64,000 nucleotides of DNA from Owenia fusiformis (lineage: Eukaryota > Annelida > Polychaeta > Sabellida > Oweniidae): positions 33,483,375 through 33,547,374 of the forward strand of contig CAIIXF020000005.1 of assembly GCA_903813345.2 (NCBI GenBank). Direction: 5' to 3'. Within the stretch, counting starts at the first letter, position 1; each line of letters begins with the position of its first letter. The position numbers were made by a program, and so were the translations under genes. The notes under the pieces are model-generated. The model had not been told where the DNA came from and ran no database searches. It was given only the letters and a program-made list of their open reading frames with translations. Below are positions 13,514-59,630 of this stretch, piece after piece.

Positions 13514-13515
13514 TA

Positions 13516-14772: not shown

Positions 14773-14774
14773 TA

Positions 14775-17055
14775 TATCCATAGAATTGTCCCAATGCCAG
14801 GGGACATCTTCTTTGAGAAGCATTCTAAGTGGGGCAGAATGAGTTGACAAATTGGGTATAAATTTTCCTAGGTAGGTTATTGATCCGAGGAAACGACGAA
14901 CACTGGCTGTATCTGTGGGGGTAGGCATTTGTAGGATCGCCTTAACCTTGTCTGGGTCAGGACGCATGCCTTTTTCGGAAAATACATGACCAATATAGGT
15001 GACAGAAGATTGAGCTAGCTTGATCTTTTTGCGATTAAGGGTAAGACCAGCATTAGCAGCTCGCTGTAATACGGCTGTGAGTATGGCATTGTGATCAGCC
15101 ATGTTGGATGCGTGTACGAGAATATCGTCCATAATAACTTCACATCCGGGTATATCATCGAAGATCTGAGACATTCTAGCCTGAAAAACTTCTGGACATA
15201 GATTGAGTCCATATGGCATACGGAGCCATCTATAGCGACCAAATGGAGTGTTGAACGTAGTGTGATACGAACTTTCCTCATCTAAGCTGAACTGATTGAA
15301 GGCTGTGTTAGCATCAAGAGTGGTAAATATTGGAGAACCACTGACATTAGCAGAAACTTGTTCCACTGTTTTACATGGGTAATGTTGACGTTTTATGGCA
15401 CGATTTAAATCACGAGGGTCCATAACAATCTGCAAACGATCTGGTTTCTCAACAATCACCATTGAGCTTACCCATTCTGTAGGTTTCGTGACTTTAGCGA
15501 TAATCCCTTTTTCCTCCAGGGACTTGAGAGCAGATTTGATTTTGGGGACTTGAGTATACGGGAAGTTTCGGGGTGGGTGAACAATGGGTTTTACTGTGGG
15601 GTCAAGGGTGAGATGACATTCTCCAATAAGTCCAAGACCTTGAAACACTTGATTATGACGATCTAGAATGGTGTTGGGGTCCTCGTTTTCTGACAACGAA
15701 AACATTGTAGATATCAGATTCATGTGGAGGCATGACGCAAGACTAAGTATGGCCTCACATTCTTTATCAATAACAATGAAATCCAGGGCATATGTTTCAT
15801 CATGGATACTGACAGGGAGTGTTACTTCCCCGACGGTGGGTATAGCGTGGCCTGAGTATGAGACAAGATTCTTAACAGAAGATCTCAGGGGTGGGGGACT
15901 GGACATAGCTGTATATGTTGATTTGGGCAGAGTGTTACACTGGGCACCCGTGTCCATTTTAAACTTGATTTTCTGTTCACATATAGATGTATTTAGGTAC
16001 ATCCCTTTTGAGGTACATGAAGTATCAACCGACGAGATTGTGTCAATGAAGAAATCACACGAAGATTCGGAATCGCTGAGTTCACGGTCACTGTAATCCT
16101 CTTGAAGAGAGTGCATCTTACGACGGGATTTACGACACCATTTGACAAAGTGCCCTACGTGGTGACAATAATTGCACTCAATATCCTTTGCTGGGCAATT
16201 ATCTCTTCCTTTGGCATGAGAGTTGCCACAATTTCCACATTTGGGTGAATCGTGCGAAGTACGAGAGTTGGGGAAGGACGGAGTACAGGATTTGGGACGG
16301 GATGGGGGACGGGATTGTGGTGGGTGCTGTGATGTGCTGCTGCTGCTGCGGTCCTGACGAGCTGATGACGAATTACGAAATTTGTGATTGTTACGATTGC
16401 TGCGGGAGACTGTATCTACAGATGCGGCTGGGGCTTTAATGTCAGCGCGATGTTGGTTGGAATATTCAAATGCTTGACAAACTTTGATGCAATCTTCAAG
16501 CTTGAAATCTTCACCTTGCTTTATTTGTTGAGATTTCTCTAAAAGTCGAAGCTGGAGTTTCTCATTACGAATGCCACATATTACCATATCTTTGGTTAGA
16601 GAGTCAGTTAGGGGACCAAATTCGCAATCTTTTGCCTTGAGTTTTAGATCTGTAGTAAACATATCAACTGATTCAGATTCTGACTGTCTCCTTGTAAGAA
16701 ATTTGTGTCTCAGGATTGTTAGGTTTTTCCTTGGTTCGAAATATTCCTTGAATTTTCCCAAAACTTTGGTGTAATCAGTCTTATCATCATCATTATCGAA
16801 CATGAAACTGTTGTAGATCGGTATGCATTCCTCGCCAATACAGGACATAAGGGTGTTGAATTTAACGTTTGAAGATTTTTGGTCTCTTTCCGTTGCACTC
16901 AAGAAGAAACCAAAACACTGTTCGAAGTGCTTGAAGTTCTCGGCCAGGTTACCCTTGAGGGACATGGGCTTAGGTCTCTGAAATAAAAGTCCTTCTGCCA
17001 TTTCTTTGCACTGTATTATAATGTCCAAAATCACGGAGTTACGAAGATATCTCAC
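14775..17055 (-). CDS. Ty3 Gag-protease-reverse transcriptase (5' half of gag-pol)
   Basis: An open frame runs from the 5' LTR to the nested insertion. The first Met (17055) overlaps the primer-binding site, so the Met of MAEGLLFQRPKP at about 17001 is the likelier start. Domains in order: Gag capsid-like region (about 20-240); two Cys-rich knuckles, an atypical one (CGNCGNSHAKGRDNC) and a canonical CCHC (CNYCHHVGHFVKWC); a basic and serine-rich linker; aspartic protease with the DTGA motif (KMDTGAQCNTLP); and reverse transcriptase with MDPRDLNRAIK, TLDANTAFNQ, LRMPYGLNLCPEVFQ and the catalytic VIMDDILVHA (Met in place of the usual Tyr in Y-x-DD). Intact until it meets the inserted element near the end of RT. 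Confidence 0.92.
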
Positions 17056-17068
17056 ATATAAGACACCA

Positions 17069-17176
17069 TGTTACATTGAACAGACTCATAGATTCCGGAA
17101 GTAGCACATGGGGTTGGATCTATATTTCAAACTATGTGGTTTACAAGTGTGAAACGGAAACATTAATATTGTTACA
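17069..17176 (-). repeat. 5' LTR of the Ty3 element
   Basis: 108 bp, identical to 11179-11286, flanked outside by CCCAT and inside by the candidate primer-binding site. Promoter and polyadenylation signals are not obvious in so short an LTR. Confidence 0.95.
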
Positions 17177-38400: not shown

Positions 38401-41400
38401 TATTGGGTGCGGCGCAAATGAGCGGAGGGTGCGGAGCTAACGGTCATTTTTGAATTTAAAATTGGGATATTTCTGAAACTAAGCCGTTTTGGGACTTCAA
38501 ATATACCAAGATATGTGTATTTGACACCAAATATCAATAAAATTGTGAAAATAGTAGTGCAATTCATTTTATAGCGACGCAGTATGCCTTAAACATTTCC
38601 CAGACCTATATATTTTGGGACTATCCTTTTAATACTGCGTCCCCAGCATTCATAAAAAATGGTGTTCAAGATACACTACCCATGCAAATTATTTTTGCAT
38701 CTTGGAAGCCAGGCAGTATCTGTGTGATTTTATAAAAATTCGGAAATGTTCTTCAGATATGAGCCCCTGTAAATATTAGGTGCGGAGCTACGTTTATGGA
38801 GCTGCTCCGCACCCAATATTTAGAGGGGGCTCATATCTGAAAAAATTTCCGAATTTTTATAAAATCACACAGATACTGCCTGGCTTCCAAGATGCAAAAA
38901 TAATTTGTATAGATAGTGCACCTTGAACACCATTTTTTATGAATGCTGGGGACTCAGTATTAAAAGGATAATTTCAAAATATAGGTCTGGGAAAGGTTTA
39001 AGGCACACTGCGTCGCTATAGAATGAATTGCGCTACTATTTTCACAATTGTATTGATATTTGGTCGGTCAAATACACATATCTTGGTATATTTGAAGTCC
39101 CAAAACGGCTAAGTTTCAGAAATATCCCAAATTTAAATTAAAAAATAACCGTTAGCTCCGCACCCTCCGCTCATTTGCTCCGCACCCAATATTTCCCACA
39201 GGCTCTGTCTGCATAGGGTGGTTAGACAATAAAGATTTACATAATGAATTAAACAATGATGATATATTATGGAATAACCACAGTTTGAGATATGGTAGAA
39301 AGGTTATATATTTTGAAGAATGGGTTGAAAGGGGTATAAAGAAACTTAGACAGATTATTGATGAAAATGATAAAATAAAGGAGTTTGAGGAAATTTTAAA
39401 TATCATAGGCCCTAGACCAGAGTTTAGAATGCAATATAATTTGTTAAAATCTTTATTGTATAATAAAACCATTGTTCACAAAAGCAATGAAAATATGTAT
39501 AATAATATTGTTATAGCAACAGCAAAATTAAAAGACTATAAAAATATAATAATAAAAAATCAAACAGAACTACCTAATATTCCTGAAAAATGGAGGGAAG
39601 AGGGTGACATAGATATGAAATTGATATTTAGAACAGTTCAATGTCTGAAGGAGCCAAGACTTAGGTCCCTTTATTATAAGATAATTAATAAAATATACCC
39701 AACAAATGAACTACTGTATAAGATGAAAATGAAAGATGATAATGAATGTGAAAAATGTAAATTAAGAGACACATACAAGCATTTCTTTGTTGAGTGTCCA
39801 CATATTAAACAGGTTTGGGAATTAGTGAAAAAATATTGTCAAGATAAATTTAACAAAAATATTGATCTGAGTCCAACAGAAAAATTGATAGGGACAAAGG
39901 ATCAAAAAATTAATGTAGTTATATCAGTGGCACATAATGTTATAAGCAAATACAAAAAGGGAAACCATCCAAATTTGGAGTTTTTATTTAACTTTGAAAT
40001 ATTGATTAGAAAAATGTAAGTGTTACACAACCTGTTGCTGTTGCTAGTATTGTATTATGTTATTTGTATACTTGTATCTTGCATTAGGAAATAAAAAAAA
40101 ATTATTAAAAAAAAAGAAGAAAGATTGTTACTACTGTATTAAAATAAAATGAATATTTAACGAAATGGCTTAATAAGAAGCCAAAATCATCAGGCAAAGG
40201 AACAACCATGGCAGATATTGAAGTCGAAAGAGTGATCTTGTATGACAAATCTGCAAAAATTAATAGCCGCAAAATTTCGAAAACTGAAAATTAGCAAAAT
40301 TTTGTAGCCGCAAAATTTCAAAATGCCAAAAATGTGAAATATAATTTCGTCAAGTATTAGTGGGAGTACAAAATTTAATGCAAACTGTTGCAGTCCAGAA
40401 TACACTACTTACATTTCTCATACTCATTCTCCAGAGTGTTGAAGAAATCCTCCATGGGTGTGGATATATTGCTCACTACACTGATATTGCTGCAGAAGTC
40501 CCAGTTGGCGAAGTAGATATCAGATATCTCAGACGCTTGCAAATAACTTAAACCTAGAAATATACCATACATCAGATAACTCCTGCAGTAATTTAAACCT
40601 GGAAATATATATGTACTCTCTCCAGATCTCCAGCTTTTCAAGTAAAACAATATAAATATTTGAGGTCATTTAGTGATTGTATAAACTCAATTTGCATCAA
40701 TCACTACCTTTCATGAATCTCCAGACAGTCAATTTAAAATTAAGAAAATTCATTAGTGATATTTCATCAAATCTATCCAAACTAGTATTTGAGAAAGTCA
40801 AATCTAGTCCGAAATCCTACCATAGCACCCCAATGTGGGTTGCATGACCTCTTCTATCTCCTATAGAGCACTAAATATCTCACAAGCTTTAATTGGACTA
40901 TGATAACTCAGAACTAATTATGCATACACCTACCAAGCTTCGTGTGACTGATGGGGAAGGACTGAGATGTAGGGGTCATATACAGTGAATATCTCTTTAT
41001 ATCTTGTTGAAGGTTAAGTCATGCAAGTCAACACTACTATTGGCATGGAAGGTCAATGTAAAGATAAAATGAGTCTAGAAATAGTATTTTCAATCACTAT
41101 CTATTTAGTATGTGTACTAAAAATAGGAATATTATTTCAAAACAAAAATCAGATTAATTTCAGAAATTTATTTGTACAATTACAACAAATGAAGAATGCA
41201 AGACACTCGTTGCTACATTTACAGATACTAGTAAAGTTCCATTTAACAGCAAAAATATATAGAACTACATTTTGCAATTCCTTTTTTCTTAACAGATTAA
41301 ATACAAGTAAAAGACTGCAAGAGTCTTAATAAATTGAAACAGCAGGTAATTTAAACAATATGAGGCTCATCGGTCGATTGACCTTCAATTTGTTTGCATA

Positions 41401-44400
41401 ATTTCCCAAACAATTCATACATGTATTTACAACTCTCATTGATATCTCTCAATAAAAATTTCCATTATGTACAAAGTAAAATGATAACATGGACAATAAT
41501 AGTAGAACCTATTTACTATATACTCCATTACTACTTTTTCAAACATGATAATTGATTGATTTGAAGGACTGGTTATCATAAATCAAATGCAGAGATCTGA
41601 TTGGCCAAGCAAGACACACAAAGTAAGCTCAATACTGCCAAATTCACACATTCTCAATTATCTTTAAGTCAAATAATTGTTTAAGATCTAAACAGTTCAG
41701 TATAGGCAATATATTCCATTTATCAAATTCAGTTCTTTTTAAGCATGTCTTCAAATGTTTATTCTTCATATTCCTCCCCGTCGCACTTTCATAGTTGTAG
41801 CTTTTAATGACTTCCCTGCATTTTCTGTAATTGGTCGCCATGGGATTCCCTTCTGCTCTGAGATATAGTCTCCATCAAAGCTGTACTTGGAATTCAGACG
41901 GGCGTAGGAACATCCCTTATGCCACCATCCCCCTGATTTAAGCCAAGCTACGCAATGTTCGAAACTTACAGCATCGTTATCCCGATCAGCTGTACTAAAC
42001 TCTTGGCCATTAAGGATTGCTCCAGTGTTTCCACCTACAACAATGTTGATACTATCAGTGGTCGTGCCATACATATAGGGCCCAATAGACAATCTGTAGT
42101 TATCGCTCTCTGCATTGATGGAGAATGATTCATACAAGGCATCAAACCACACACCGTAATAGTCCTGGAGGTCGAACTTGATCTCATATGATCCACTGGT
42201 TGTTAATGTATGGATGTTATCATTACCGAGCCAATATTCGCCATTCAGGTCCCCGAATCCATTCTTATAAGCTTGCCAAAGTTTATCATAAAATGACACG
42301 GTGCCATCAAAACGTTTCTGGATCACTGTCCAACCACCATCAGACATATCACAGTAGACCTCGAAAGCGGGCAGGTTTGGATCTGGTTGTATGGAATACA
42401 CACCATCTGATGTATAACAACCATGCAAAAGCAGATCTGAGCAGTCTCGTTTAATTGTATAATCACACACAACTTCGCTGTGTATCCATCCCGGAGCGAA
42501 AAGTCCTGTAGCGGGCAGATTATTTGCATCAATCATCTCACAGTTCTCATTCAGCTTATGATAATTGATAGCCCCACAATTTGCCGTCATTTCACATTTC
42601 ATCATACAAAGTTGTTTTGTGCCTATGTCACCTAAAAGTTCCATCACAGGTGCGTTCAGTTTCAGATCAGACTCGATGTTATGCAGCTTAGAGGAGATTA
42701 TCTTTATCCCGACTACTTCAGGAATAAAGATACCTATGAAGAAATGAACCCCTAGAATGTAGCTCATCAACATTCTGAATCAAATCAAATGTCTTGTTCA
42801 AAACCAAACCGTCTACTAATAGTCACACTTGAGGAAAGTTTTTTGATGATGACGTCTAATGTGATCAATTATTTGACATGTGATCATGTTTGATGTTAAA
42901 GTTGAAAGAAATCTATACTAATATTTGTATTTGTTTCTTGACACAAATATAGGAGCATCAGTCATTGATTAAGCTGAAAACTCAGGAAATCACTTCAAGA
43001 TATTCCCTTGAAAATATACAAATAGTTTATTCTACTTGATTTGAATATTCGGCCTATGCATCTCTTGGGCTTTGCGAAATAATGTCCAAAAGTAATAATG
43101 ATATACTTCTTTAATTATTTATAGCATTATTTCCTTAATTTGAAGAAAGGATACTTATAAAACTGAAGTATAGGAAATATTTATGCTTTTCAAAATGGAG
43201 GCCGAAGTATCTACAGGGTGGGCAAAAAATGTCTATATGTTAAGTTTTTTAATAATCCATTGATTTTAAAAATATTTTCACTGGAGATTAGACAAATGAT
43301 TCCAAAATGGCATTTACTATATCTTTTGAGAATTTGGATAAGAAATGTTTTGAAATAGACAGTAGGAGTGTGAATGTAAGGTATTATTTTATTTGGATAT
43401 CTTAGACAATCTACGAGAGGGACACATCATATATATATTTCTGTTAAAAACATTGCAAGTATGTTAACCAACATAGCACCAATAAAATTGGAAGAAAATG
43501 GAAATGAGGTTATTTCAGGGAGATTAGTTATGGTAGTACTTTAATCCAAATCACATTGACAGAGCAACGGATCATTGATTGGGACTAAATCAGGTTGATT
43601 GAACAAGAATGAGAACATCAAGCATAATTGATGAATATATCAAGTGAAAATCCATTTAATGAGTTTCTAGTCATGTATCTTATAATTCAATAAACGGATA
43701 CAAGAATTCGAATCTGGAAAAACATGTTACTTCTACTACCTTATTTTCTCTGTAAATATCACTCATGGATCATATATCAAGTACATGTACCATTACCAAA
43801 ATATCAAGAATCGTGTAAAGCATCCTACATGATAATTATATATCATATATATATCATGAACCATGAAAAATCTGTGTGTAAATAATTTATCCAAGTAAAA
43901 TTGAATTTTTGAATAAAAATGCAATTAACTTTGATCACTCTTTAAAAAATGCATCTTTGCAGAATTCAAAAATAGGACCCACGGTCCTGTGCTCACACAG
44001 TTTGGACTTTCAAACAAAAATATTGATTTGGATTTTGTAGTCTCGAACTTTGAGAAACTTAGACAGCACAGTTGTGTGACCTAGTTTGATGACCTTTGAC
44101 CTTGAAAATTTTACTTATTTAGAGCTCAGTAAGGTCTTTTGTGATTAAGCTGACCAGAATTTACATCCAAAAATCAATTTGAAAAATCAACTTTTTTGAC
44201 CTTTCAAAGGTCACTGAAGGTCAAGTAAAGGTCAAATCCTAAAACTAATGTCAGATTTGAACTCCTGGTAACTTGTAGATGATTTTCAAAAATTTGGTCA
44301 AATTGAAGCAGGTTGAAAAATAACTCATTTTTACTGTTTTTTGACGTCAAATATCTCAAAAACAGTAAAAATTTGATGCTGACAGTCCTACTTTTTGTCA

Positions 44401-47400: not shown

Positions 47401-50400
47401 TCTAAACTTTCAAAGGTAGAAACATCCCTGAAAAGGACCACGAGTTGTTTTTAGAATGAATCTGGGGAGCTTTTTCATGCATTTCTCTTGTGTTTTTCAT
47501 CTTAAAAACATCAATACACTTTAAAACATTTTATTGACTATAAGATTGAACCATAAATTCCTTAAAAATATTTCTCATTTTCAAGGATTATCTATGGATT
47601 AACACCCAGCTATTGTTATTTTTCAAAATTTAGAGGGCTGGTCTGGGAATCATTATTACGATCGCTTTTGAATAATATTAATGCTGTTTTAAATAGGTTT
47701 CATGTTTCCCAATAATTTCGCAATTTGTGTAAATGGTACCCCTTCCTTAATTCCTGGAAAATTTTCTCTTTGAGGAATTTCCCATAGTAATCTAATGGTA
47801 TAGTTCCAAGTAGATTTTGAGATGACAGGAAAGTTAATCATTAATACACACCTCATTGGCTTGTGATATAAACCAAAACAACCCAATAAGGTGTGTATTA
47901 ATGAGATTCATTCTACAAACAACTTGTGGTCCTTTCAAAAGAATATCCTAAACAGTTTGGTTGGAAATCTGTAGACAAGCCTCAACAGACAAGATTTCAG
48001 GACAGAAAATCCAAAATGGCCACCTAAAAATTTACCCAGAATGCCCAAAAACTAATCACTTCTAAAGTTCATACGTAGAATCACCCCTGAAAATTTCAGA
48101 TGAACCCATAAAACATTTTTTTCTGGTCAATACTCTGACAATACGAAGTTCTCAAATAGAGATGAGTACTTTAATTCAAATTACTCATTTTGATGAGTGT
48201 ATCAGTAAACTTCTTCTCGTGTTTACCTTATATTTCCCCTTTTGATAATTATTAATATGGAAAACAAGATTGAAGTATTGTATTGTATCAGACAATAAAA
48301 GCTGGTAGAAAATTATTTATCTAAAAATTGTTGTGCCCAGATTTCTACAATAACTAGACAACATCAACGCCAAAGCGTAGCAAATCCAATCGAACAGTCA
48401 TGGCTGGTATTTTTACAAACAAAGTGTATAGCAAAAATGGCAGCCATTTTTCAAAATGGCCACTTTCTACCAAAAGTGTCATTAGACAGTGTGCCATGCT
48501 TATAGTATTCACAAACCAAATATGAACAAAATCTCTTGACTACTTTTCGAGTTATAGTAAAATACATAAAAAAATGGCGGCCATTTTTCAAAAATCGTGA
48601 AATAACGAGCAAAGCCCGCCATTTTTCAAGATGGCTGCCATGTGCTTCTTTAATATCTACATTTCTAGCTGTATTAATGTCCTATTATAATTTTTTTACA
48701 TTTAAAACATATTGCTATGACAGTTTTACATATTGCACCTAAATTACTCTAAAATCGGCACTAAAATAGCCGCCATTTTTAAATGAGCGGCCATTTTGAA
48801 AATCCCCTTGCAAGAACTTCTACCCCCATAGAGTATATGTATACAAAATATGAACAAAATTGGGCCAATGGTATTTGAGTTATTGCCCGGACGGACGTAC
48901 AGACGGATGGAGGCGTTCCCTATATCTCTCCGAACTTTGTTCGATGGGATAATAAATCATATATAAATTGTGAATTAAGTATAGCCTTATTAATGTGCAT
49001 CTACTGTTAGCTAGTTATCTACTATTATAAGGATAAATAAATACTAATTAGAAAAGAGCAACCTCCTGGAATAGTAGATCCCAATGAGCATAATTTTGAA
49101 CATTTCATTAGACAAAACCTAATCCCATAACATTCTCTAGTAGACCCACAAGGCTGAAGGCATAGGAGCAAATCTGACCATTTTTGTATTTTTTATGTAT
49201 TTTTGTACAAAAAGGCTTCTTGAAATTTGCCTCTTGAGCATGAGTCCTAATCCTACATCAGATTATAAAATTCTTACCAATTCAGATAACAAGTATTTAG
49301 GGGATCAAAAATTACAGATTTTCTATTAATATAAAAAGCCCATTGAAGTAATTACAAATACTGAAAAAATGACAGACAGACAATATGGCAGACATAACAA
49401 GGCATTATATTAACATGACAAAATGTCACCACCTTGTAAGTTATTGTAAATGGTTAAAAAATGAACATTGGATATTGTTTATGGTTTATTGAACATGGTA
49501 GTTTCCATTTGTCTGAAAATTGTCAATGGCACGACAAATGGAAGGAAGAAAGAAAGGATTGGGTGGATGGATGGATGGATTGATGGATTGAAGGAAGGAT
49601 GGATGGATGGGCCAGTGGGCAATTCCATAGGCTGTTTGCCAAAAACACAATGGCTGTAACAATGTCACTTTTACTTGGTAGTGACATAAAAATACCATGC
49701 AATAAGAAAGTTGAAAAATGTTGTCAGAAAGTTAAAACTCACAGTTCTCTGCTCCAAGAGATAAATAAACTTCTAAATGTGCACCAATAAATTAAATTAT
49801 TGTGGTAGAGTCCAAAAGTGAGGGACTGGACAAAGCTGTAGTGGGATACAGAGAGGAGAGGGGGGGTTAGGATAAACGTGGAACCTCTTCCTATTTTGCT
49901 TTTACTTTCTTATTTGTGGAGCATATCTCAAATTCTATTCTATTTTGATGAGACTTAGAAAATTTAGGCAATGGAGTTGATGATTTAACATGGTTGCAAA
50001 TGTTCAAGGTTTAAACTAATAATAAACACATCAACTGAAAGTGTATTCATCAATGGATTGGTTTTATTGTATATTTCCTTTGAATAAAGAAACATCTGAT
50101 GAACAGTTATCTGATTCAATTAGACAAGGTACAGACAGAGTAGTTCATACTAAATAGATGGTAATATATAATTCAGATATTTCTATAGCTTACCTGTGCC
50201 TTGAGATTTGGGTGGAAGACCACATAACCATTTCCATTGATAGCAAACACATAGCCTGCCTGGCCCAACTGAAACAATAAAAACTCACTTAATTATTGAT
50301 TCATATTTTATCATTATGGTTTTGTTTTTACATAGTACTAAGACAAAAAAAACACTAGACATTATCAATTTATGAATACAAAGCATTCAGTATAACATTA

Positions 50401-53400
50401 CTGTCATCGAAAAAAAATTTGCAAATTTTTTAAAACTGGCATTTGTGTTGTATTCTTAGGATATACAGGATTTTGTGTCTATTAGAGATATTCACAACTT
50501 TTTACAAAAGATATTTATGACTTTATAAGGCTATATGATAATTTGAGATGAACAGTATATGAGCAGGTACACTGAACTTAATTGAATCTAAATTGAATAG
50601 GCTTTTATGTATTTTCCAATCTTGTCTTATGTGCTGCATACATATGTACACAAGTGTAAAGTACCTCCTTCCTTGGTGCTAGTTCCATCATCTCTTTGGT
50701 AGTGACATCTGTTCCCATCACTCCGAGCAGAGTTTGGTTGCCCTGGAGACAGAGACATACAGGCATATAGATGGTAGCAGCATCACATTCAAACGTTTTG
50801 GATAATATATTGCTATACTATTTTAAATGAAAACACAAGTTCTCATGAAACATTCAAACATTCTAATCAAAGTAATAAATCCTTAAATCTAACTCTTTAA
50901 CCATGGAAAAAGAAAATAATATAAAGGAATTTATCAATAAATGATTGAAACTGTAACAAATATAAAGAAATTCAGAGACAGGGTTTGACATGGGGGAGTT
51001 CCTATACATGCTGACACAAGGCATTAACATGCAAAATGTCACCACCTGCCATTTGTTACAGACACCAACTGCCAAACTCCGAACACCATCCAGAGAAAAG
51101 TTGGAGAATATAGCAATATGTCAGCACTTGTGATAAGTGGTGACATAAAAATCAACTGGTTCTGGGTCAGCGCTTATGTCACAACATTGTGATGGATAAC
51201 TCCTATCATTGTATACGTACCCCCTCAGATCTGTTATACACAGGCAGTGTTAAAGTGGTCATCATTCCCAAACCCTGAAAAAGGAAATCATGTTTATGTG
51301 AATATTTGGACACTAACATACCGTACATTTGTAATATTCAAGTTACTAAATAATAACTTCACAATAATGTAATTCATCATACATAATAGAAATAAATAAA
51401 AATTATGATTTGTGTTCTGGTTGCAATTTTGTGCTCAGTTTAAAAATCAATACAAACAATTTTTAGTTAAGATTATTCTTTTCAATTAAAAGATAGTAGA
51501 CACTCATTCCACATTTATTTCTAAAGCTATTAGTCTCTACATGTTAATGACTATTAAGTTATTTCTAAGCATGAATATGTATGATACCAGTGCTAAACAA
51601 TATGCACAATTATAGCAATATAAACATTTTGATGACTTAAATAAACTGACAATACCCTATCATGCTGAAATATGGATTTAAAAATGCAAAACAACAAAAA
51701 GTCATACAGGAATCAAACATCAATTGCAAACTGCTAGATTAAAACAATGTAAATAAATAACCACTATATATATCATGCATTTATATTATAATGGCAAAGG
51801 GATCGAAAAATGCATTTTTCTAGAGCACTCAATTCTTCAAAAAACATAAGTTCCACTCAAGGTGACTTTGAGAAGAAATTATGTTGAAAAGCGTTTGGGT
51901 CAAAACAATGATGTCTATCAAAAAGCATAGAAACCTATGTGGGATGGAATAAAATGCCATTTTGCGACATGGTAATCTTTTAATCCATGATTTAACCCAA
52001 GTGCTCTCGCAATGCATGTCTTTATATGAGACTGCTTATCAACACAATTTTTCCTCAAAATTCATTCCATTGCTTCTTCTACACTGAGAGAGAACTATAC
52101 ATATGTACATATCACACACAACATCCTTTAAAATCACTTCAGAAATTGTTGTCTCAAACATAACATGCATTTTACCCTTGTATGGAAAACATTGCTAATC
52201 TGTACAGCCTTCTGAATATCCAAATGTTCATTTACGATTCTTAGATACCTCTATACACAGAATAGCAGCAAAGCAAATCAAACACATCATGAATTCATGA
52301 ATATCTACATGCAAACACAAGGCAGTCCAAGCCTGAGAATTAGAAAAAACTTCAGAACTGCAGATTAAAAAATTATTGGCTAAAAATAAAGAAATATGAG
52401 ATGATACCTGGCACATTGTTTTTTTAATTTATTTATTTACATTATTAATACAAAGAATACGTCTTACACATTGGAAAATTGTTTTGAATTGTAAGAATTT
52501 TATTAATGTCCAATCTTCATTTGAAAATGACCTAAATGTTTTTTTTAAACTTTTTACCATTGTTCAATGCACCAGAAGCCAATTGATATAGAATGAACAG
52601 AATATTCACAACATTACTTTTTTTCTAGAGAATATTTAATGTTTATTCTACTTGGCCAACTATAATATGATTTTTGTACCAGCTATCATCTCGTTAGATA
52701 AGATTTATAAGAGAACAAAGCAGATTCAGCATTATGTGAGAGACAATCTCATAAAAAACACATTTAGCAATGGGCTATAAATAATACTCTAGTCTCTATG
52801 AAGAGGGGTACATGTGTATGAATCATTCTTATAGTTGTAATATGCAGAATTGTATTTACAGGGTGGGCCAATAAAAATTGGAACATTTTTCTATTTATTC
52901 AACTTTCTTTATTTTTGCAGTTCAATCCACAAAAAATCAGATAATGGTAAAATGATTATTAGTAAAAATGTGAAAGATAAAAACCATTCTTATTAGCAGA
53001 ATGCCCCACCAATTAAATGAAAACTGACTTCCATAAATCGCTGCATACCTCATACCAAATAATAAGCTATAACTGCTATTGATAATCAATTTTGTGACGA
53101 GGTTCAAATTGAAGCATCCATGCTTTGAGGCCAATTAAGAAGCAAATATCTGAGTAATTTATTGAATAATTTCAAAGCAATCAATGAGATTTGGTGAGAG
53201 ATATGGTAATGATGAACAAGGCATTAACATGACAAAATGTCACCACCTAAAACAATTTGGTCAATTTATTAAAGCAAGTTGGAAAATACATTTTGACCTT
53301 AAGAAGGTTTGATTTGAACTTCTTAGAACATGTAGATGATTTTGAAAAAAAAATTCGTCAATTTGAAGCAAGTTGAAAAAATACCTCTTTGACTTTTTTT

Positions 53401-56400
53401 GACATTGAGAAGGTCATTGAAGGTCAAATGTAAAGTCAGATTTGAACTTCTGAGAACATGTAGATGATTTTGAAAAAAAAATTAAGTCAATTTGAAGCAA
53501 GTTGAAAAAAGACCTTTTTGACCTTGAAAAGGTCATTGAAGGTCAAATGTCAAATCTAAAGTCAGATTTGAACTTCTGAGAACATGTAGATGATTTTGAA
53601 AAAAAAATTAGTCAATTTGAAGCAAGTTGAAAAAAGACCTTTTTGACCTTGAGAAGGTCATTGAAGGTCAAAGGTCAAATCTAAAGTCAGATTTGAACTT
53701 CTGAGAACTTGTAAAGTCAAATTTGAACTTCTGAAAAGATGTAGATGATTTTGAAAAAAAATTTGGTCAATTTGAAGCAAGTTGAAAACATACCTTTTTG
53801 ACCTTTTTTGACCTTGAGAAGGTCATTAAAGGTCAAATGTCAAATCTAAAGTCAGATTTGAATTTCTGAGAACATGTAGATGATTTTGAAAAAAAAAATT
53901 AGTCAATTTGAAGCAAGTTGAAAAAAGACCTTTTTGACCTTTTTTGACCTTGAGAAGGTCATTGAAGGTCAAATGTCAAATCTTAAGTCAAATCTAAAGT
54001 CAGATTTGAATTCCTGAGAACACGTAGATGATTTTGAAATTTTTTTTAGTCAATTTGAAGCAAGTTGAAAACAGACTTTTTTGACCTTTTTTGACCTTGA
54101 GAAGGTCATTGAAGGTCAAATGTCAAATCTTAAGTCAGATTTGAATTTCTGAGAACACGTAGATGATTTTGAAAAAAAAATTTAGTCAATTTGAAGCAAG
54201 TTGAAAACATACCTTTTTGACCTTTTTTGACCTTGAGAAGGTCATTGAAGGTCAAATGTCAAATCTAAAGTCAGATTTGAAGGTCAAATGTCAAATCTAA
54301 AGTCAGATTTGAATTTCTGAGAACATGTAGATGATTTTGAAAAAAATTTTAGTCAATGTGAAGCAAGTTGAAAAAAGACCTTTTTGACCTTGAGAAGGTC
54401 ATTGAAGGTCAAATGTCAAATCTTAAGTCAGATTTGAACTTCTGAGAACATGTAGATGATTTAGAAAAAAATTGAAGTCAGTCTAAACAGTATTTGTTAA
54501 GTTATAGGAAGTTGTAAGAAATTGTTATAGACGCCGGACGCCAACCGCCGGACACCAACCGCCGGACGCCAACCACCAACCGCCGGATGCCGTCGCAAAA
54601 AAACGGAGACCATAACAATATGTCACCACTTTTGGTGGTGACATAAAAAATTGAAGTTCAGGTCAGTGTTTGCTATTATTGGGCTACTAAATGAAGAAAA
54701 CAGTGATATTATATTCTATTATTTAGTGTTATCTTAATCGCAATTATGTGATGTGATTATTACCTTGTCATAATTTTACATAAGATCTGGATCCTCTCGC
54801 TAGAATTAAGGATATACGATTGATGGATATTTTTCAATGAAATCTTGTACAAAGACTGACCTTTCCTTTTGAATCCATGGAAAATAAACGGGAATGATAT
54901 TTTTGAATATTTTAGCAAAAAGTTGATGCGGCTTAAATAGGGGCAATTGACATGACATCTTCACACACTCAGTCTTCACTGCCTTCAGATTGAAGCCAAG
55001 TGAACAAAGATGTTGACATGCTAGGAATTGAATGGCCAAACTATATATATACAGTAGTTGCATCTTACGCTCCCTTTTGCAATGAGCTATGGTATTGGGG
55101 CAAAATGCAAAATAAACATAAATCATTGTCAAACTACAAACTAGCAATTTAGCATGGCATACACTGACATACTACATTAGGCCATTTTCACTGACAATAG
55201 TAATTGCACCTTAATACCATTGGACTTCATGTTATTAAGTGCATTTTCACAAATTAAAAACTTATGATTTTATGTCTTAATTATTCATAAGTAATAAAAT
55301 GCTGAACTGAATTCAAGGAATTTCTTTATAAATATGAGTACATGAATTCCATTGGCATATTTTCATAAATTGGGCAACATTGTATAATTCTAAAATTACC
55401 CCATGGTCAGATATAACGTTAGTAAGTAGGAGGTTTTTAATATCTTTGAGAGCCTTTGGCCGTGCCAACACTGGGATGTACTCCTACAGGTTCAAGTAAA
55501 TTGAGAATAAAACATATACTTTATTGTACATGTTATATAAATAAGCAGGGGGAGGAGGTGGAGAGGAATGCATGCTGTATGAGTATTGTAAAATGAAAGG
55601 AAGATGATGATATTGAATTTTATTTCAGAAAAGATTGGAAGAAAAAAGATTTAACAAAAACAAAAAAATGAAGACAATATTTCACAGGTCATGAAATATA
55701 AGCACCCTGCTGGTCAATGAGTCAATATTTTAGTGTTATTATCTGCATAACAAATATATAACAAATACATCAATGTAACCTATTATCTGAAATTGCTTTT
55801 AAAATAAAAAAGATGTATATAATTAGGGGTATAAAATATTGTTTCCACAACTCAACAATTCAGTTCCATCAATCAAATGGCAACACACACATGCTTCTAA
55901 CCCTTAACAGAACACCATACTGCTTTAAATTGAGTTTAGAAAATATTATGAATTAAATCAGAATTAGTACAAGCAATTAATCAATAAATCAATCAACTCA
56001 AATTGTTATTGTTAAATATTAGTCACTAAATGAATGAAATTGAACTCAAATAAAGCCATTATGGTGTTAATTATCATTCACACTCCACCAAATATCTGTA
56101 AGACCATGGCATGTTAAATGTGCATATGAACCAGTATTCTTTAATACTTTGGGAACAAATTGGAGGTCATCTCATTCAAAATGGCAACATTACAAGAAAT
56201 TATCTATTTCTGTATGATTATCATTGAAGATTCTTTGGAACTTTGTATTTGTTTTGGAAGAAAATATTGAATGTCTGCTACACACCCAGCATTTTGAATG
56301 AGATGGTTAATACCTCATAATACCTGCTTTCCTCAGTTGTAACCATATCATAACTTAAGATTTAAATGGCTGGCTGTTAATCAATATTCAGTACCATCAT

Positions 56401-59400
56401 AATACTGTTATAAATTATATCTGATTTCCAATTTTCAATTTCACAATGTAATTATGGCAATGTCATTAATAATGAATTTCATGAATCAAAATCAAACAAC
56501 ATGTACTCAATATTTTTGACTTCCAACAATGTTTTTAACTTTGGTCTATTTATTGTTTATTTAAATGTATTAATCTGAAATAAAGAATTTTTTTGACAAA
56601 CAGCCATCAATCTTAAGTTATGTACATACCAAAAACTATCTTTGATTTCTACATGGCTTTCCCAGCCCACATTATCTAAGTTGCAGACATGTTATGTTTT
56701 AATGCATTTTGGTGGGTTAATATGCAAAACAAATCATAAATGTTCTCATCACAATGAAATAACTCAGAAGCGGGTTTTTAATTTAATCAAAAACATATCA
56801 AGCAATTAAGATCAAATATTTTAATTGTAACGAGAAGCATTAATGATAATGCATAAAGTGAAACCTGTCTCAATGAACATCTTTTTTGTTGAGCATTTCA
56901 GAATAACTTCCATAAAAATACACAATTTGGTATACATATTTATAAAATCTTGCATCAAGTGATTCTATTGCCATAAACTCTATATCAACTCCATCTCTCT
57001 TAAGCCAAAACCCAACTAATGCGAGTGATCGAGTTTCGATAGGACAATAGAGATTTGATACAAAATTTCAGTGTTCACTGGACACACATTTCACTGTATA
57101 TATGATGAAATGGGTTATGTGGGTTATAAACTCAACAACTGTGAGTTAGTTGTGCCTGCAATGTAACGTTCTATTACCCATCCATCATTATATGTTGATG
57201 TGTACAGGACATCAGAGACGTTCCCATAGGCAAATGAGGCTTCCACAAACTCCTGATATTTCTAAAAAAAATAGTTCATTTCTAATAACTCTGGAGATCA
57301 ATTTATGTAAACAGATCTGAAAAACTCTACATGTAAATGCTGTATATCTTTAATCGCATCACTATCTGTTGGGCACCTGAAAGCAAATATTAATTTACTA
57401 CAAGGAATCTTCTAGTATCCCTAAAACCAATGTGACTGTCAATAAATCATAAGATAATAGGATCACTCTTAAACCAAGATAGCAAGTTGAAAGGAAGAAA
57501 TTTCTGTTTGAATCACAAAAGAGGTAAAAAGATTGGTATAGTATATCAGACCCAAAGCCATTAATGGTCTAAAATTGGAGATAAAATATGTGATATTGTG
57601 TTGTGGCATACCGACAATGCATCAAGGTAGATATTGCTCTCGCGGAAGAGCCTCACTTTGGAAAGCACCAGAGGGCGTGCAACTACGTCAACATAATCCT
57701 AATAAAAATGTGTAAGCGTTATCTTTGCTCTAAGTCTCTCTCTTCTGATTTAACCGCATGTATATACATAACTAAATAACAGACCAAGATCCTTATTTTA
57801 CGAGAAATGTGTAAACTTAATTTTATTGAATACAATATAAGTTCTCGTAACTTATTCTTGCAATGTAATAATTCTATTCCTTGGGAAATACACCATTTAT
57901 AAATGGAATATATAGCAACAAAAACCCATATAATACTCCTTTTAATTGTATTCAGATTAAAAATCCTTTCATGTCTTGTTACAGATATTATAAACAATTA
58001 CTGAACATTTAATAAAATGTGTTTAGATTAGCAATATAGTTTAAATCTCAATATCAATTATATTTGCAGTAAGTTTTGAAATAAAATTATTTACTCAAAC
58101 TCAGATCATCCCATAATTTGGAATGAACTTATGAAAGAAAGAGTTGGAACATATTTAAAGAGGACCAAATAAATGTTCAAACTGGTCCAAAAGTCATGAG
58201 GAAATGGTTTCTCCTTCCAAAAGAAGACACCGGTACTTTTAACTCAGTCAACAGGGGATATACTTTGAATCGTAAAATTTAAATAATTTGTATTTAACTT
58301 ACTTGAACAGTTGATCTGATGGCCCCCATGGCAGGAATGGTTGAGAAATAACCTACAATGGAACAGAAGAAGAAATGAATATTTATAGAGGTTTCAATTT
58401 ATGGTATATATACAATGCAAAGTAATCAACTAATCATGCTTTTACATTCATTCATAAAGAGGGCAGCAAAGTATAGAGTACAATATATTAGCAAAAGATA
58501 ACACTACTTTTGATAAACATGCCAATGTGTCGCTAATGTGAATATAAATTCAATATGAAAAATGATTTGAGATATCTGATGAATATGGTAGGATTTGAAG
58601 AATTCTGATGAACAAAGTCATTTAGCATGCCAAATAAAATTGAACAAAAAGGAATGTATTAAGCAAAAATATTGTGATTAATTTGTCTCTGTATCTTGTT
58701 ACCCCTTTAAAATTGAATATATTTTACACTTTAATCATTATAATATCCATATATAAGATGTGAATGGAAACAACATTCAGGGACATTGTATAATTACATA
58801 TATGACTAAATAATATATGTAAACATGATTTAACACATAATTATCTAAGACAACATTTAATAATATTACAAAACATGGAAAATTTTAGACAATATATAAG
58901 TGGGCAATGACAGAGAACTTTACAACAACACATTAACAACATACAAATGCAAGATGCCATTATGCATAAAGATACAAGTATTTCTCTAGAAATTTTTTCA
59001 TTTCAATCCAAGAATTGACCTGGGTAATTCCGATCATTATTTGTGATATCTTCCAATCTGGACCAAAAAGACGAATAGATTGTTGGATGGATGGATGGTT
59101 GGATGGATGGATGGATGATTAGATGGATGGATGGTTGGATGGATGTTTGGATGGATGGATGGTTGGATGGATGTATGGAATTCATGGAGCATCATTGTAA
59201 AGATTCACAGGTCTCGTAGTCTCATTCTAAAAAGGCATGTGTAAACTCACCTGAGCTTTAGAAATGTTATACATCCATATAGGAATAGGAGATGAAAATG
59301 TCTAGAGAATTGAATTGCACAGTAGCAACGAAGATAGGTCCAACATGTCCAACAAACTCAGGCATATTACCTCATGATAAATCAGCAAAAGACAAAATCT

Positions 59401-59630
59401 TATCTCACATAAAATACTTATGTTGTTTTTAAGTTAACAAAATGCATGTTAGAGACTTCAAAGTGAAGCAGCCTGAGTTTGAATTCCTGTCCATGAGAAC
59501 CAATCCCCATCACCACCATGTGTTATAAAATGCTAGTATTGTTAGATCTACCTCTGTTAGCGCAGGCGGCCCAGCGTACAGAAGCAACAGGGTTAGCGGC
59601 TGGACCAACAGCGTAGGTAAACACACGCAC
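29481..59630 (-). CDS. Voltage-gated calcium channel alpha-2/delta subunit, C-terminal part
   Basis: Auxiliary extracellular subunit of high-voltage-activated calcium channels. 5' exons (signal peptide, VWA) lie outside. Exons (minus): 59630-59552, 58352-58303, one of three alternatives (57698-57612, 57261-57178, 55483-55400), 51274-51221, 50742-50665, 50268-50194, 46393-46322, 45678-45607, 45190-45061, 40553-40413, 37779-37695, 37497-37328, 36569-36507 (63-nt cassette), 35137-35051, 34619-34474, 34153-34004, 33712-33654, 33270-33244, 32905-32877, 32712-32592, 31797-31608, 29570-29481. All phases agree: 684 residues. Family hallmarks: [10 protein letters not shown] after the VWA domain, [20 protein letters not shown] and [17 protein letters not shown] (Cache), [59 protein letters not shown], and a C-terminal hydrophobic segment after CGATG (GPI signal or membrane segment). 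The exact vertebrate paralogue cannot be assigned. Confidence 0.95.
29655..31400. repeat. C-rich tandem repeat array in the last intron of the alpha-2/delta gene
   Basis: Five or six diverged copies of a unit of about 300-330 bp. Each has TTGACTCATACACTTTGAAA, GTGCCCAGAAAGCACCAAAT, TTGTAAAATTTTCTAGGGG, and long C runs with ACCCCCC. Copies begin near 29795, 30128, 30413, 30685 and 31135. The left edge carries a G13 run followed by GTGCGATGGGTGCGACCGCAC, related to 17284-17559. No coding content. Confidence 0.85.
31873..32408. mobile_element. Palindromic element with CAC ends and 5-bp TSD
   Basis: 536 bp, almost wholly inverted-repeat (arms about 245 bp, centre about 32140), ends CACTGGTGATCCACTCGATT. 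The flanks are TATAT on both sides (31868-31872, 32409-32413), a 5-bp duplication. CAC termini with 5-bp duplications are typical of the Transib/RAG-like group. No transposase inside. Assignment is inference. Confidence 0.75.
32526..32579. repeat. 18-bp direct repeats, three copies
   Basis: TATTCAAAACACAGGGTA three times head to tail, immediately beyond the donor of exon 32712-32592. Confidence 0.9.
33125..33212. mobile_element. Harbinger-like mini-MITE
   Basis: 88 bp, ends TGCCTGGGTCACATTTGCT and AGCAAATGTGACCAAGGCA, flanked by TTA (33122-33124, 33213-33215), the 3-bp target of PIF/Harbinger. It sits about 30 bp from the donor of the 27-nt exon 33270-33244. Confidence 0.75.
33906..34003 (-). 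promoter_or_regulatory. Five tandem 5' splice sites
   Basis: The end of alpha-2/delta exon 34153-34004 and its donor are repeated as a 22-bp unit, AGCATTTTCATTGTAAGTAGAC. Donors occur at 34003-33998, 33981-33976, 33959-33954 and 33937-33932 (all GTAAGT) and 33915-33910 (GTGAGT). Only the first keeps the frame: the second adds 22 nt and shifts it, and further ones bring in an in-frame stop. Confidence 0.9.
34293..34433 (+). mobile_element. Short family I tandem-core element
   Basis: 5' end AAGGCATTGACATGCAAAAT followed by GTCACCACC, core with GTTACAGACGCCAATCGCC, 3' end GTCACTACTTTTTGGTGGTGAC then ATAAAAATC. No tandem core. Confidence 0.7.
35234..35407. mobile_element. Harbinger-like MITE, related to 33125-33212
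   Basis: Inverted ends CCACAGTCACATTTGCT and AAATGTGACTGAGGCA share the GTCACATTTG core of the mini-MITE at 33125-33212. Edges are less clear and no exact target duplication is seen. Confidence 0.55.
36507..36569 (-). CDS. 63-nt cassette exon of the alpha-2/delta gene
   Basis: 21 codons, phase 1 at both ends, so skipping keeps the frame. It adds [20 protein letters not shown] between the 'FIAPYKT' block and [10 protein letters not shown]. It contains NFT and NTS glycosylation sequons. The vertebrate family has a divergent loop here. Whether it is alternatively spliced cannot be seen from genomic sequence. Confidence 0.75.
38035..40113 (+). mobile_element. 5'-truncated L1/Tx1-like non-LTR retrotransposon
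   Basis: Flanked by a 13-bp target duplication AAGAAGAAAGATT (38022-38034, 40114-40126), ending in an A-rich tail after a final stop. It codes in plus for the C-terminal part of an ORF2 protein. The first piece (38054-38371) reads [13 protein letters not shown] and [13 protein letters not shown]. The second (39221-40019) reads [11 protein letters not shown] and a Cys-His knuckle of the zf-RVT type ([17 protein letters not shown]). A palindromic element at 38372-39220 splits the frame; the two pieces are in the same frame across the site. The RT core is missing. It lies in the alpha-2/delta intron between exons 40553-40413 and 37779-37695, opposite to the gene. Confidence 0.88.
38372..39220. 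mobile_element. 849-bp palindromic element with CAC ends and 5-bp TSD
   Basis: Nearly perfect palindrome, centre about 38790, ends CACCCTATGCAGACAGAGCC. Flanked by GTTAG on both sides (38367-38371, 39221-39225). Removing one copy of GTTAG and the element leaves the host retrotransposon frame continuous, which fixes the boundaries. No coding capacity. End motif and duplication length match the element at 31873-32408, although the arms differ in sequence. Confidence 0.9.
41766..42773 (-). CDS. Secreted PAN-like/fibrinogen-domain (FReD) protein, intronless
   Basis: 335 residues in a single exon. Signal peptide ([16 protein letters not shown], cleavage near residue 22), then a Cys-containing PAN/apple-like region (about 35-105, [19 protein letters not shown]), then a fibrinogen C-terminal domain (about 110-330). 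The FReD signature is clear: [77 protein letters not shown]. The DRDND calcium-site acids and the flanking cysteine pairs are kept. FReD proteins are often lectins or pattern-recognition proteins in invertebrates. It is nested in an intron of the alpha-2/delta gene, same strand, between exons 45190-45061 and 40553-40413. AATAAA starts about three bases after the stop. The lack of introns suggests a retrocopy, but no poly-A tail or flanking repeats are visible. Confidence 0.92.
   Translation of the reverse strand: MLMSYILGVHFFIGIFIPEVVGIKIISSKLHNIESDLKLNAPVMELLGDIGTKQLCMMKCEMTANCGAINYHKLNENCEMIDANNLPATGLFAPGWIHSEVVCDYTIKRDCSDLLLHGCYTSDGVYSIQPDPNLPAFEVYCDMSDGGWTVIQKRFDGTVSFYDKLWQAYKNGFGDLNGEYWLGNDNIHTLTTSGSYEIKFDLQDYYGVWFDALYESFSINAESDNYRLSIGPYMYGTTTDSINIVVGGNTGAILNGQEFSTADRDNDAVSFEHCVAWLKSGGWWHKGCSYARLNSKYSFDGDYISEQKGIPWRPITENAGKSLKATTMKVRRGGI
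43969..44768 (+). mobile_element. Tandem-core element, family III (one-unit copy)
   Basis: Starts AGGACCCACGGTCCTGTGCT then CACACAG, ends GGCTCACTGTGTGAGCC, a 3' hairpin preceded by a GGACGGACGGACC microsatellite. The core contains one copy of the unit that is amplified in family I at 53214-54651 (GTCAGATTTGAACTCCTGG, TGTAGATGATTTTC, TTGAAGCAGGTTGAAAA). A second family III element is at 61825-63533 on the other strand. Confidence 0.7.
46975..48130. repeat. Degenerate tandem repeat, unit about 165 bp
   Basis: Four or five diverged copies containing AACCTGTAGACAAGCCT, AATCCAAAATGGCCACC and AAAATTTCAGATGAATCCA. Split by the MITE at 47432-47935. It lies in the alpha-2/delta intron between exons 50268-50194 and 46393-46322. 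Confidence 0.75.
47432..47935. mobile_element. MITE inside the tandem array
   Basis: Inverted ends AAAGGACCACGAGTTGTTT, then AGAATGAATCT, and its complement at the right edge. An inner inverted pair (ATTAATACACACCT / AGGTGTGTATTAAT) lies near the right end. The array continues on both sides. Confidence 0.75.
48356..48957 (+). mobile_element. Tandem-core element, family II (second copy)
   Basis: Same ends as 6697-7846 (CAACGCCAAAGCGTAGC and GTTCGATGGGATAATAAAT), about one and a half core units, then the same 3' part (GATGGAGGCGTTCCCTATAT). Confidence 0.75.
49395..49692 (+). mobile_element. Family I tandem-core element with GGAT microsatellite core
   Basis: 5' end ACAAGGCATTATATTAACAT then GACAAAATGTCACCACC, 3' end TGTCACTTTTACTTGGTAGT then GACATAAAAAT. 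The core holds a short GGAT/GAAG-type microsatellite (49549-49613). Confidence 0.65.
51019..51153 (+). mobile_element. Short family I tandem-core element
   Basis: 5' end CAAGGCATTAACATGCAAAA then TGTCACCACC, core GTTACAGACACCAACTGCC, 3' end ATATGTCAGCACTTGTGATA then AGTGGTGACATAAAAATC. It lies in the intron between exons 51274-51221 and 50742-50665. Confidence 0.7.
53214..54651 (+). mobile_element. Family I tandem-core element, long copy with amplified core
   Basis: 5' end ACAAGGCATTAACATGACAA then AATGTCACCACC, 3' hairpin TGTCACCACTTTTGGTGGTG then ACATAAAA. Between them are about nine head-to-tail copies of a unit of 115-150 bp (GTCAGATTTGAACTTCTGAG, ACATGTAGATGATTTTG, CAATTTGAAGCAAGTTGAAA). 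Each unit has several AGGTCA or TGACCT half-sites, often as AGGTCATTGAAGGTCA (spacing 4). Before the 3' end is a short GCCGGACGCCAACC repeat. Located in the intron between alternative exon C and exon 51274-51221. Confidence 0.75.
55400..55483 (-). CDS. Alternative exon C of the alpha-2/delta gene
   Basis: 84 nt, phase 0 at both ends, acceptor CCTGTAG, donor GTAATT. It encodes 28 residues starting [13 protein letters not shown] and ending [11 protein letters not shown]. The ARP motif is intact, but the position of the conserved Tyr is Ile (ISD). The next constitutive exon (51274-51221) is about 4.1 kb downstream. Confidence 0.85.
56858..57103. mobile_element. Possible pogo-like MITE
   Basis: Left end AGTGAAACCTGTCTCAATGA and right end GTTCACTGGACACACATTTC then ACTGTA are imperfectly inverted, and the left end resembles the CAGTRAAACCTG family. 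Diverged, edges uncertain. Confidence 0.4.
57178..57261 (-). CDS. Alternative exon B of the alpha-2/delta gene
   Basis: 84 nt, phase 0 at both ends, T-rich acceptor ending TTTTTAG, donor GTAATA. It encodes 28 residues starting [13 protein letters not shown] and ending [11 protein letters not shown]. The N-terminal half has lost the ARP motif, but the end matches WTEAYMD, and the Tyr-x-Asp pair is present as YND. Only about 350 bp separate it from exon A. Confidence 0.8.
57612..57698 (-). CDS. Alternative exon A of the alpha-2/delta gene
   Basis: 87 nt, phase 0 at both ends, acceptor TTATTAG, donor GTATGC. It encodes 29 residues starting [12 protein letters not shown] and ending NIYLDALS. It aligns to the vertebrate segment that starts EYLHVLSRP and ends WTEAYMDS, just before the TLLTTVAMP strand. 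The Tyr-x-Asp pair (YLD) is kept. This version is the closest to the family consensus. Confidence 0.85.
59077..59177. repeat. GGAT microsatellite
   Basis: About 100 bp of imperfect (GGAT)n with GTTGGATG interruptions. Confidence 0.95.

What the first reader, a model, noticed from the sequence alone, without database searches (positions are those of the whole stretch)
55400..57698. Three same-phase exons encoding alternative versions of the Cache Tyr-x-Asp segment of a calcium-channel alpha-2/delta subunit
Seen: three consecutive exons of 87, 84 and 84 nt, each phase 0-0, each with GT-AG signals, each encoding 28-29 residues that begin (D/K/E)Y and end in a [Y/I]-x-D motif. Known: alpha-2/delta proteins have one such segment of about 28 residues between the VWA domain and the TLLTTVAMP strand, and the dCache_1AA amino-acid-binding motif (Y..R.WY..YxD..D, from memory) has its YxD pair there; in alpha-2/delta-1 this pocket binds leucine and gabapentinoids. 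Inference: the exons are mutually exclusive and would give channels whose auxiliary subunit senses amino acids differently. A and B keep YxD (YLD, YND); C has ISD and may be ligand-blind. The final Asp of the motif (GTDV, exon 50742-50665) is constant.
Basis: partly seen in the sequence, partly recalled or inferred. Interest (0 to 1): 0.88.

Follow-up and report, generated by a model that had tools for sequence, protein, structure and literature searches.

The report
Swappable exons in calcium-channel helper gene
A gene for a calcium-channel helper protein in what is probably a marine worm appears to carry two sets of three interchangeable exons, one of which would rewrite part of the pocket that in the human relative binds amino acids and the drug gabapentin.

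Summary
Exons A (87 nt), B (84) and C (84) lie on the minus strand where stated, each GT-AG and phase 0-0. The gene is a calcium-channel alpha-2/delta with the RRR motif of types 1 and 2: 351 bits to solved alpha-2/delta-1. The exons encode the equivalents of human Tyr450, Asp452 and Leu454, residues that a paper lists as important for mirogabalin binding. A reads Y-D-L (as human), B Y-D-W, C I-D-G. A and C are clearly homologous; B is supported but weaker.

In the joins tested, only one-at-a-time use keeps the frame. For A/B/C all 8 in/out combinations stay open, so exclusivity there is inferred. A type-3/4-like paralogue on the same chromosome showed one copy of each segment. Synonymous sites are near saturation in 4 of 5 copy pairs tested, so the duplications look old.

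No transcripts were available: splicing and altered ligand sensing are inferences. Best reading: two mutually exclusive exon clusters giving up to nine ectodomains. New variant of a known kind.

The parts
59552..59630 (-). Exon Z, third alternative VWA-end exon ([26 protein letters not shown]+G), 79 nt, phase 0 to 1; partners X (C5:33560360-33560438, L002:2986-3064) and Y (C5:33559426-33559510, L002:2052-2136) lie above the window
   Evidence: X also
58303..58352 (-). Constant 50-nt exon [16 protein letters not shown], phase 1 to 0
57612..57698 (-). Exon A, human-like pocket segment; Y-L-D-A-L (Tyr450, Asp452, Leu454 kept)
57178..57261 (-). Exon B, divergent version; Y-N-D-G-W (Tyr and Asp kept, Leu454 to Trp); N-V-S glycosylation sequon read from the sequence
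55400..55483 (-). Exon C; I-S-D-H-G (Tyr450 to Ile, Asp kept, Leu454 to Gly)
51221..51274 (-). Constant exon [18 protein letters not shown] (carries the Thr461 equivalent)
50665..50742 (-). Constant exon with GTDV (Asp491 equivalent)
50194..50268 (-). Constant Cache exon [25 protein letters not shown]

Best explanation
An alpha-2/delta auxiliary subunit gene of the RRR (type 1/2) kind with two successive clusters of three mutually exclusive exons: X/Y/Z for the last strand and helix of the VWA domain, and A/B/C for the Cache segment carrying the second-half pocket residues (human 450/452/454). One exon of each cluster is taken per transcript, so up to nine ectodomains differ in the VWA end and in the amino-acid pocket (Y-D-L, Y-D-W, I-D-G), while the first-half residues Y236/R241/W243 and the last Asp (D491) stay constant. 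Shown: exon anatomy, homology, phases, frame logic, residue mapping. Inferred: mutually exclusive use, and the effect on ligand sensing or channel trafficking.
For: Open frame over 13 exons; 351 aa of it align to solved alpha-2/delta-1 with 351 bits. X, Y and Z are homologous (X-Z E 5e-7, Y-Z 1.5e-4, Y-X 0.002), all of length 1 mod 3; each alone keeps the frame and all 5 other combinations meet a stop (with A downstream). A and C are homologous; A, B and C have the same phases and near-equal lengths. The paralogue g2 on the same chromosome shows one VWA-end exon and an unsplit EY segment in the 30 kb held. pS 0.77-0.85 with pN 0.39-0.64 for A-C, X-Z, Z-Y and B-C. Published MXE prediction uses the same criteria: length, splice sites, frame, homology (PMC3228551, abstract).
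Against: No RNA evidence. A/B/C exclusivity is not frame-enforced. B's homology is weak, and B-C (18% amino-acid identity, pN 0.64) is near random. X's codon score is ordinary (47% of 1600 open segments score higher). X-Y pS is only 0.47 against pN 0.44, no sign of protein-level constraint in that pair. A held MXE survey warns that many similar neighbouring exons are not spliced exclusively (PMC5740500 passages). The constant half-pocket already differs from human at 207, 215 and 217, so ligand binding of any isoform is unproven.
Confidence: 0.65

Rival explanations
1. A/B/C are cassette exons that can be skipped or combined, giving insertions or deletions in the Cache pocket rather than clean swaps.
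For: All 8 combinations of A, B and C stay open; the A-B intron is 350 nt; no pairing elements were recognised; mammalian alpha-2/delta-1 splicing is by cassette exons and an alternative acceptor (PMC9901441 passages).
Against: Each exon encodes the same segment with the same end points and near-equal length (B and C need no gap to human from 450 into the next exon); skipping would delete Tyr450 and Asp452, and doubling would add a second copy inside a folded domain; the neighbouring X/Y/Z cluster can only work by swapping.
Confidence: 0.2
2. B and/or C (and X or Y) are dead or dying exon copies, not used.
For: B is divergent and scores near chance pairwise; X has an ordinary codon score; the gene does contain copies of another exon with in-frame stops at C5:33574287-33574340 and 33574418-33574471.
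Against: Copies near saturation at synonymous sites still keep frame, both splice signals, phase and core residues; the codon scores of B and C are in the top 5-7% of 1600 open segments.
Confidence: 0.12
3. Mutually exclusive exons, but the swap tunes folding, trafficking or contact with the pore subunit rather than amino-acid sensing. (Overlaps with the best explanation: same splicing, other purpose.)
For: X/Y/Z lie in the VWA domain, which contacts the alpha-1 subunit through its MIDAS site (PMC9901441 passages); the constant half-pocket differs from human at 207, 215 and 217.
Against: One of the two clusters covers pocket positions 450/452/454, and the versions differ at 450 and 454.
Confidence: 0.35

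Closest known systems
Human/rabbit alpha-2/delta-1 (CACNA2D1)
   Same: Collinear VWA_N, VWA and Cache segments, MIDAS (DTSGS), LYDVRRRPWY, Tyr450-x-Asp452 in exons A and B, Asp491
   Different: [quoted passage not shown] that this is not the segment found here is my reading of that description
Mutually exclusive exon pairs of Drosophila cacophony (Cav2) and human CACNA1C exon 8/8A
   Same: Alternative versions of one segment in a calcium-channel complex (PMC11828482 and PMC11043036, abstract starts in search listings)
   Different: Those are in the pore subunit (recalled for exon 8/8A); here the auxiliary subunit carries two clusters of three in its ectodomain
Paralogue g2, C5:17776-17803 kb, alpha-2/delta-3/4-like
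   Same: Same domains; an intron at about the same place after the Tyr-x-Asp segment
   Different: No duplication seen; the EY segment is fused to the exon before it; Phe at the 215 position, RYR in place of RRR, Phe in place of Tyr236
dCache_1AA amino-acid-sensor motif (YxxxRxWY ... Y ... D as printed in PMC9901441)
   Same: Isoforms with A or B keep every motif residue of human alpha-2/delta-1
   Different: Isoform C lacks the second Tyr

Membership tests
[quoted passage not shown]
   Pfam VWA_N 102-103 bits, VWA 45-49 bits in the three isoforms tested, both over cut-off; DTSGS read directly
[quoted passage not shown]
   4 stretches over the PF08473 cut-off, all in this gene (6 candidates scored); 351 bits
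[quoted passage not shown]
   PF02743 29-30 bits, below the cut-off of 45, on a partial protein
[quoted passage not shown]
   The 3' end was not assembled
dCache_1AA amino-acid sensor | Y...RxWY in the first half | tested here: met
   LYDVRRRPWY, identical to solved alpha-2/delta-1; the motif as printed in PMC9901441 has one residue fewer between Tyr and Arg than this stretch, in human as here
dCache_1AA amino-acid sensor | Tyr and Asp in the second half | tested here: inconclusive
   Met with A and B (YLD, YND plus GTDV); Tyr not met with C (ISD)
Gabapentinoid-type pocket (alpha-2/delta-1/2) | Small residue at human 215 (Ala, or Thr in type 2) | tested here: not met
   Met at this position by alignment; rule on a bulky residue (Phe) from PMC9901441
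Mutually exclusive exon cluster | Adjacent, homologous, same phase, similar length, GT-AG | tested here: met
   X/Y/Z (79, 85, 79 nt) and A/C; B meets all but has weak homology; Y and Z lie 16 kb apart
Mutually exclusive exon cluster | Combined inclusion or skipping breaks the frame (X/Y/Z) | tested here: met
   5 of 5 improper combinations stop
Mutually exclusive exon cluster | Combined inclusion or skipping breaks the frame (A/B/C) | tested here: not met
   8 of 8 combinations stay open; frame breakage is supporting evidence, not required for the kind
Mutually exclusive exon cluster | Junction reads show one exon per transcript | not testable with these tools
   No RNA data

The most novel reading that the evidence does not exclude
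A calcium-channel auxiliary subunit whose amino-acid receptor site is rewritten by alternative splicing: two mutually exclusive clusters let one gene make channels that are amino-acid-sensing (A), restricted by a Trp in the pocket (B) or insensitive (C), combined with three VWA ends that set channel contact, so that extracellular amino-acid sensing by channels is cell-type programmed.
Probability: 0.3. Interest if true: 0.85.

Novelty: new variant of a known kind. Interest (0 to 1): 0.62.

Why it matters
Why alpha-2/delta proteins keep a bacterial-type amino-acid pocket is, as far as I know, open. A gene that swaps second-half pocket residues while holding the rest constant is a natural mutagenesis experiment: it would make the role of ligand binding in channel trafficking testable by comparing isoforms. 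It would also add the ectodomain of an auxiliary subunit to the places where channel diversity is made by mutually exclusive splicing. None of six searches listed such a report, but their lists were mostly capped and the library lacks most subscription journals.

Tried and rejected
Organism: a cox1 search found nothing. The haemoglobin-linker family PF16915 has 3 matches, which suggests an annelid (restriction to annelids recalled). About 0.5 Gb would fit Owenia fusiformis (size recalled; 12 chromosomes from a passage of PMC9539403); the species is not proven.

Regulatory RNA pairing: 25 inverted-repeat pairs over 51275-58302, 16 of them wholly inside the intron after C, the rest short and AT-rich; no docking/selector set was recognised. 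I made no shuffle control for this.

Further exon copies: none convincing for A/B/C or for the 50-nt exon in the 104 kb held.

Other paralogues: L008-L012 are more distant VWA/Cache genes. L008 aligned over the whole EY segment, there unsplit; L010 over its last part only; L009, L011 and L012 not over it.

Structure prediction was not used: its rule asks for proteins that the DNA gives letter for letter, and a spliced protein may fall outside it. I did not send one.

Conservation in related animals was not tested: metagenome scans were capped at 0, and I did not search the prokaryote, viral, phage or plasmid collections with these proteins.

Literature: searches listed 20 of 561, 12 of 356, 15 of 18, 12 of 38, 10 of 11 and 9 of 9 papers; no title or abstract start reported alternative exons at these two alpha-2/delta positions. 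Read as passages: PMC9901441, PMC11308618, PMC10761187, PMC7426832, PMC5740500, PMC9539403; abstract and outline only: PMC3228551; others search listing only.
Full report
Where it is. The window is G000:C5:33483375-33547374. The gene runs on the minus strand from above the window (VWA_N matches at C5:33575033-33575182, over the cut-off, and 33579240-33579356, under it) down to about window 31,600. I fetched the 40 kb above the window and number it as a continuation of the window ('g1': g1 position n = C5 position 33483374+n). Exons above g1 96009 and the 3' part of the gene were not assembled.

The gene. Thirteen exons from g1 96009 to 50194 join into one open frame in each of the three isoforms printed. 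Of isoform Z+A, 351 residues align to solved alpha-2/delta-1 with 351 bits. Pfam gives VWA_N and VWA above cut-off in the three isoforms tested; dCache_1 scores 29-30 bits, below its cut-off. The four genome-wide matches to VGCC_alpha2 lie in this gene. The MIDAS reads DTSGS and the arginine motif LYDVRRRPWY, as in human. The gene is therefore an alpha-2/delta with the RRR of types 1 and 2. The constant half of the pocket is not identical to human: V207, A215 and Y217 are Tyr, Met and Asn here, while W205, W223, Y236, R241, W243, T461 and D491 are kept (numbering counted from the chain positions).

The three exons of the finding. A, B and C are at the coordinates given, phase 0-0, GT-AG. Human numbering from the alignments puts their Tyr-x-Asp at Y450 and D452, and the next pocket residue at L454. 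These three are among 12 residues listed as important for mirogabalin binding (PMC11308618 passage). A has Tyr, Asp, Leu; B has Tyr, Asp, Trp; C has Ile, Asp, Gly. B also carries an N-V-S glycosylation sequon (read from the sequence). The motif of amino-acid sensors needs Tyr...Asp in the second half (PMC9901441 passages): isoforms with A or B have it, C does not.

How sure are the exons? A and C are clear homologues of the human and paralogue segments. When C is left out of the profile it scores only 11 bits (E 0.047), yet it is still the first segment below those of the training sequences. B is weaker: 5.4 bits, with 6 of 2577 unrelated open segments and 21 of 5000 residue shuffles as good; with three recalled human sequences added, 1 of 2577 and 9 of 5000. 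An earlier, partly failed run placed B and its nested versions at ranks 21, 22 and 24. B's codon score beats 95% of 1600 open segments, and B with its two nested versions holds the top three places among the 11 open phase-0 segments between A and C. B and C are also open in a second frame, so openness adds little. With Y450 and D452 in register I take B as a third version, at about 85-90% (a judgement).

A second cluster. X was met by a genome search (E 0.36) and by a local one, X and Y by a search with the gene's own exons: X (C5:33560360-33560438, IRVFSYVLGSQPDPHWSIRWIACENK), Y (C5:33559426-33559510, VRIFTHVMGSSPVAGEVPTVKDIACHNR) and, 16 kb on, Z (window 59630-59552, [26 protein letters not shown]). 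Lengths are 79, 85 and 79 nt, each 1 mod 3, phase 0 to 1. Each alone keeps the frame; the 5 other combinations (none, XY, XZ, YZ, XYZ) meet their first stop at residue 65, 90, 82, 84 and 90 counted from the start of the preceding exon (with A downstream). All three keep the Cys that matches human Cys404 (position counted; its disulphide role is recalled). X has an ordinary codon score (47% of 1600 segments higher), Y better (10% higher), Z high (0.2% higher).

Exclusivity. For X/Y/Z it follows from the frame if the exons are used at all. For A/B/C all 8 combinations are open, so exclusivity rests on the structural argument: skipping deletes two pocket residues and doubling puts a second copy in a folded domain. 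A held survey says that many similar neighbouring exons are not exclusive (PMC5740500 passages), so this is the weakest step. No pairing elements were recognised.

Age and constraint. Copies differ at pS 0.77-0.85 and pN 0.39-0.64 for A-C, X-Z, Z-Y and B-C (26-28 codons each, gaps placed by hand; A-B not computed). Synonymous sites are near saturation while frame, phase and splice signals survive, which argues for old copies held by selection. Two pairs do not help: X-Y (pS 0.47, pN 0.44) shows no constraint, and B-C (18% amino-acid identity) is near random. The paralogue g2 (30 kb held, C5:17774000-17803999) shows one VWA-end exon and the EY segment unsplit in the exon before it; the more distant L008 also has the EY segment unsplit, with no second copy seen in the 5 kb held. 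The clusters were therefore seen in this gene alone among the three in which the whole EY segment could be aligned.

How it probably works. One exon of each cluster is chosen per transcript. The two swapped segments are the end of the VWA domain, whose MIDAS binds the pore subunit (PMC9901441), and the second-half wall of the amino-acid pocket. The cell would thereby choose channel contact and ligand response separately. The ligand step is inference. A structural review reports no discernible conformational change of alpha-2/delta-1 on binding gabapentin or mirogabalin (PMC10761187 passages), so even in mammals the output of this pocket is unsettled.

Known or new. Mutually exclusive exons in channel genes are well known, and mammalian alpha-2/delta-1 has splice regions, but these are described as cassette exons and an alternative acceptor in other parts of the Cache domains. 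I saw no report of alternatives at these positions in the six searches named in Tried and rejected. I file it as a new variant of a known kind.

Noticed in passing
C5:33560360-33560438 and 33559426-33559510 (L002:2986-3064 and 2052-2136), with window 59552-59630: Second cluster of three alternative exons, for the end of the VWA domain; only one-at-a-time use keeps the frame.
   Followed up: yes
C5:33574418-33574471 and 33574287-33574340 (g1 91044-91097 and 90913-90966): Two tandem partial copies, 131 nt apart, of the RRRPWY exon with its acceptor region; both read R-stop-P, so they look like dead or poison exon copies.
   Followed up: partly
window 41766-42779, minus strand: Single open frame of 337 aa with Fibrinogen_C (192 bits) and a PAN domain, lying inside the alpha-2/delta gene on the same strand, between its exons near 45,040 and 37,500; whether other exons of the gene lie between was not settled.
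   Followed up: partly
window 11606-13699 and 14767-17070, minus strand; 39156-40019, plus strand: Retroelement open frames: RNase H, integrase and reverse transcriptase domains; a zf-RVT domain in the plus-strand one.
   Followed up: partly
L008-L012 (C1:24.0 Mb, C1:31.3 Mb, C5:6.1 Mb, C4:1.3 Mb, C2:25.0 Mb): Five further fetched regions with VWA/Cache genes of alpha-2/delta or CACHD1 type, suggesting an expanded family in this genome.
   Followed up: partly
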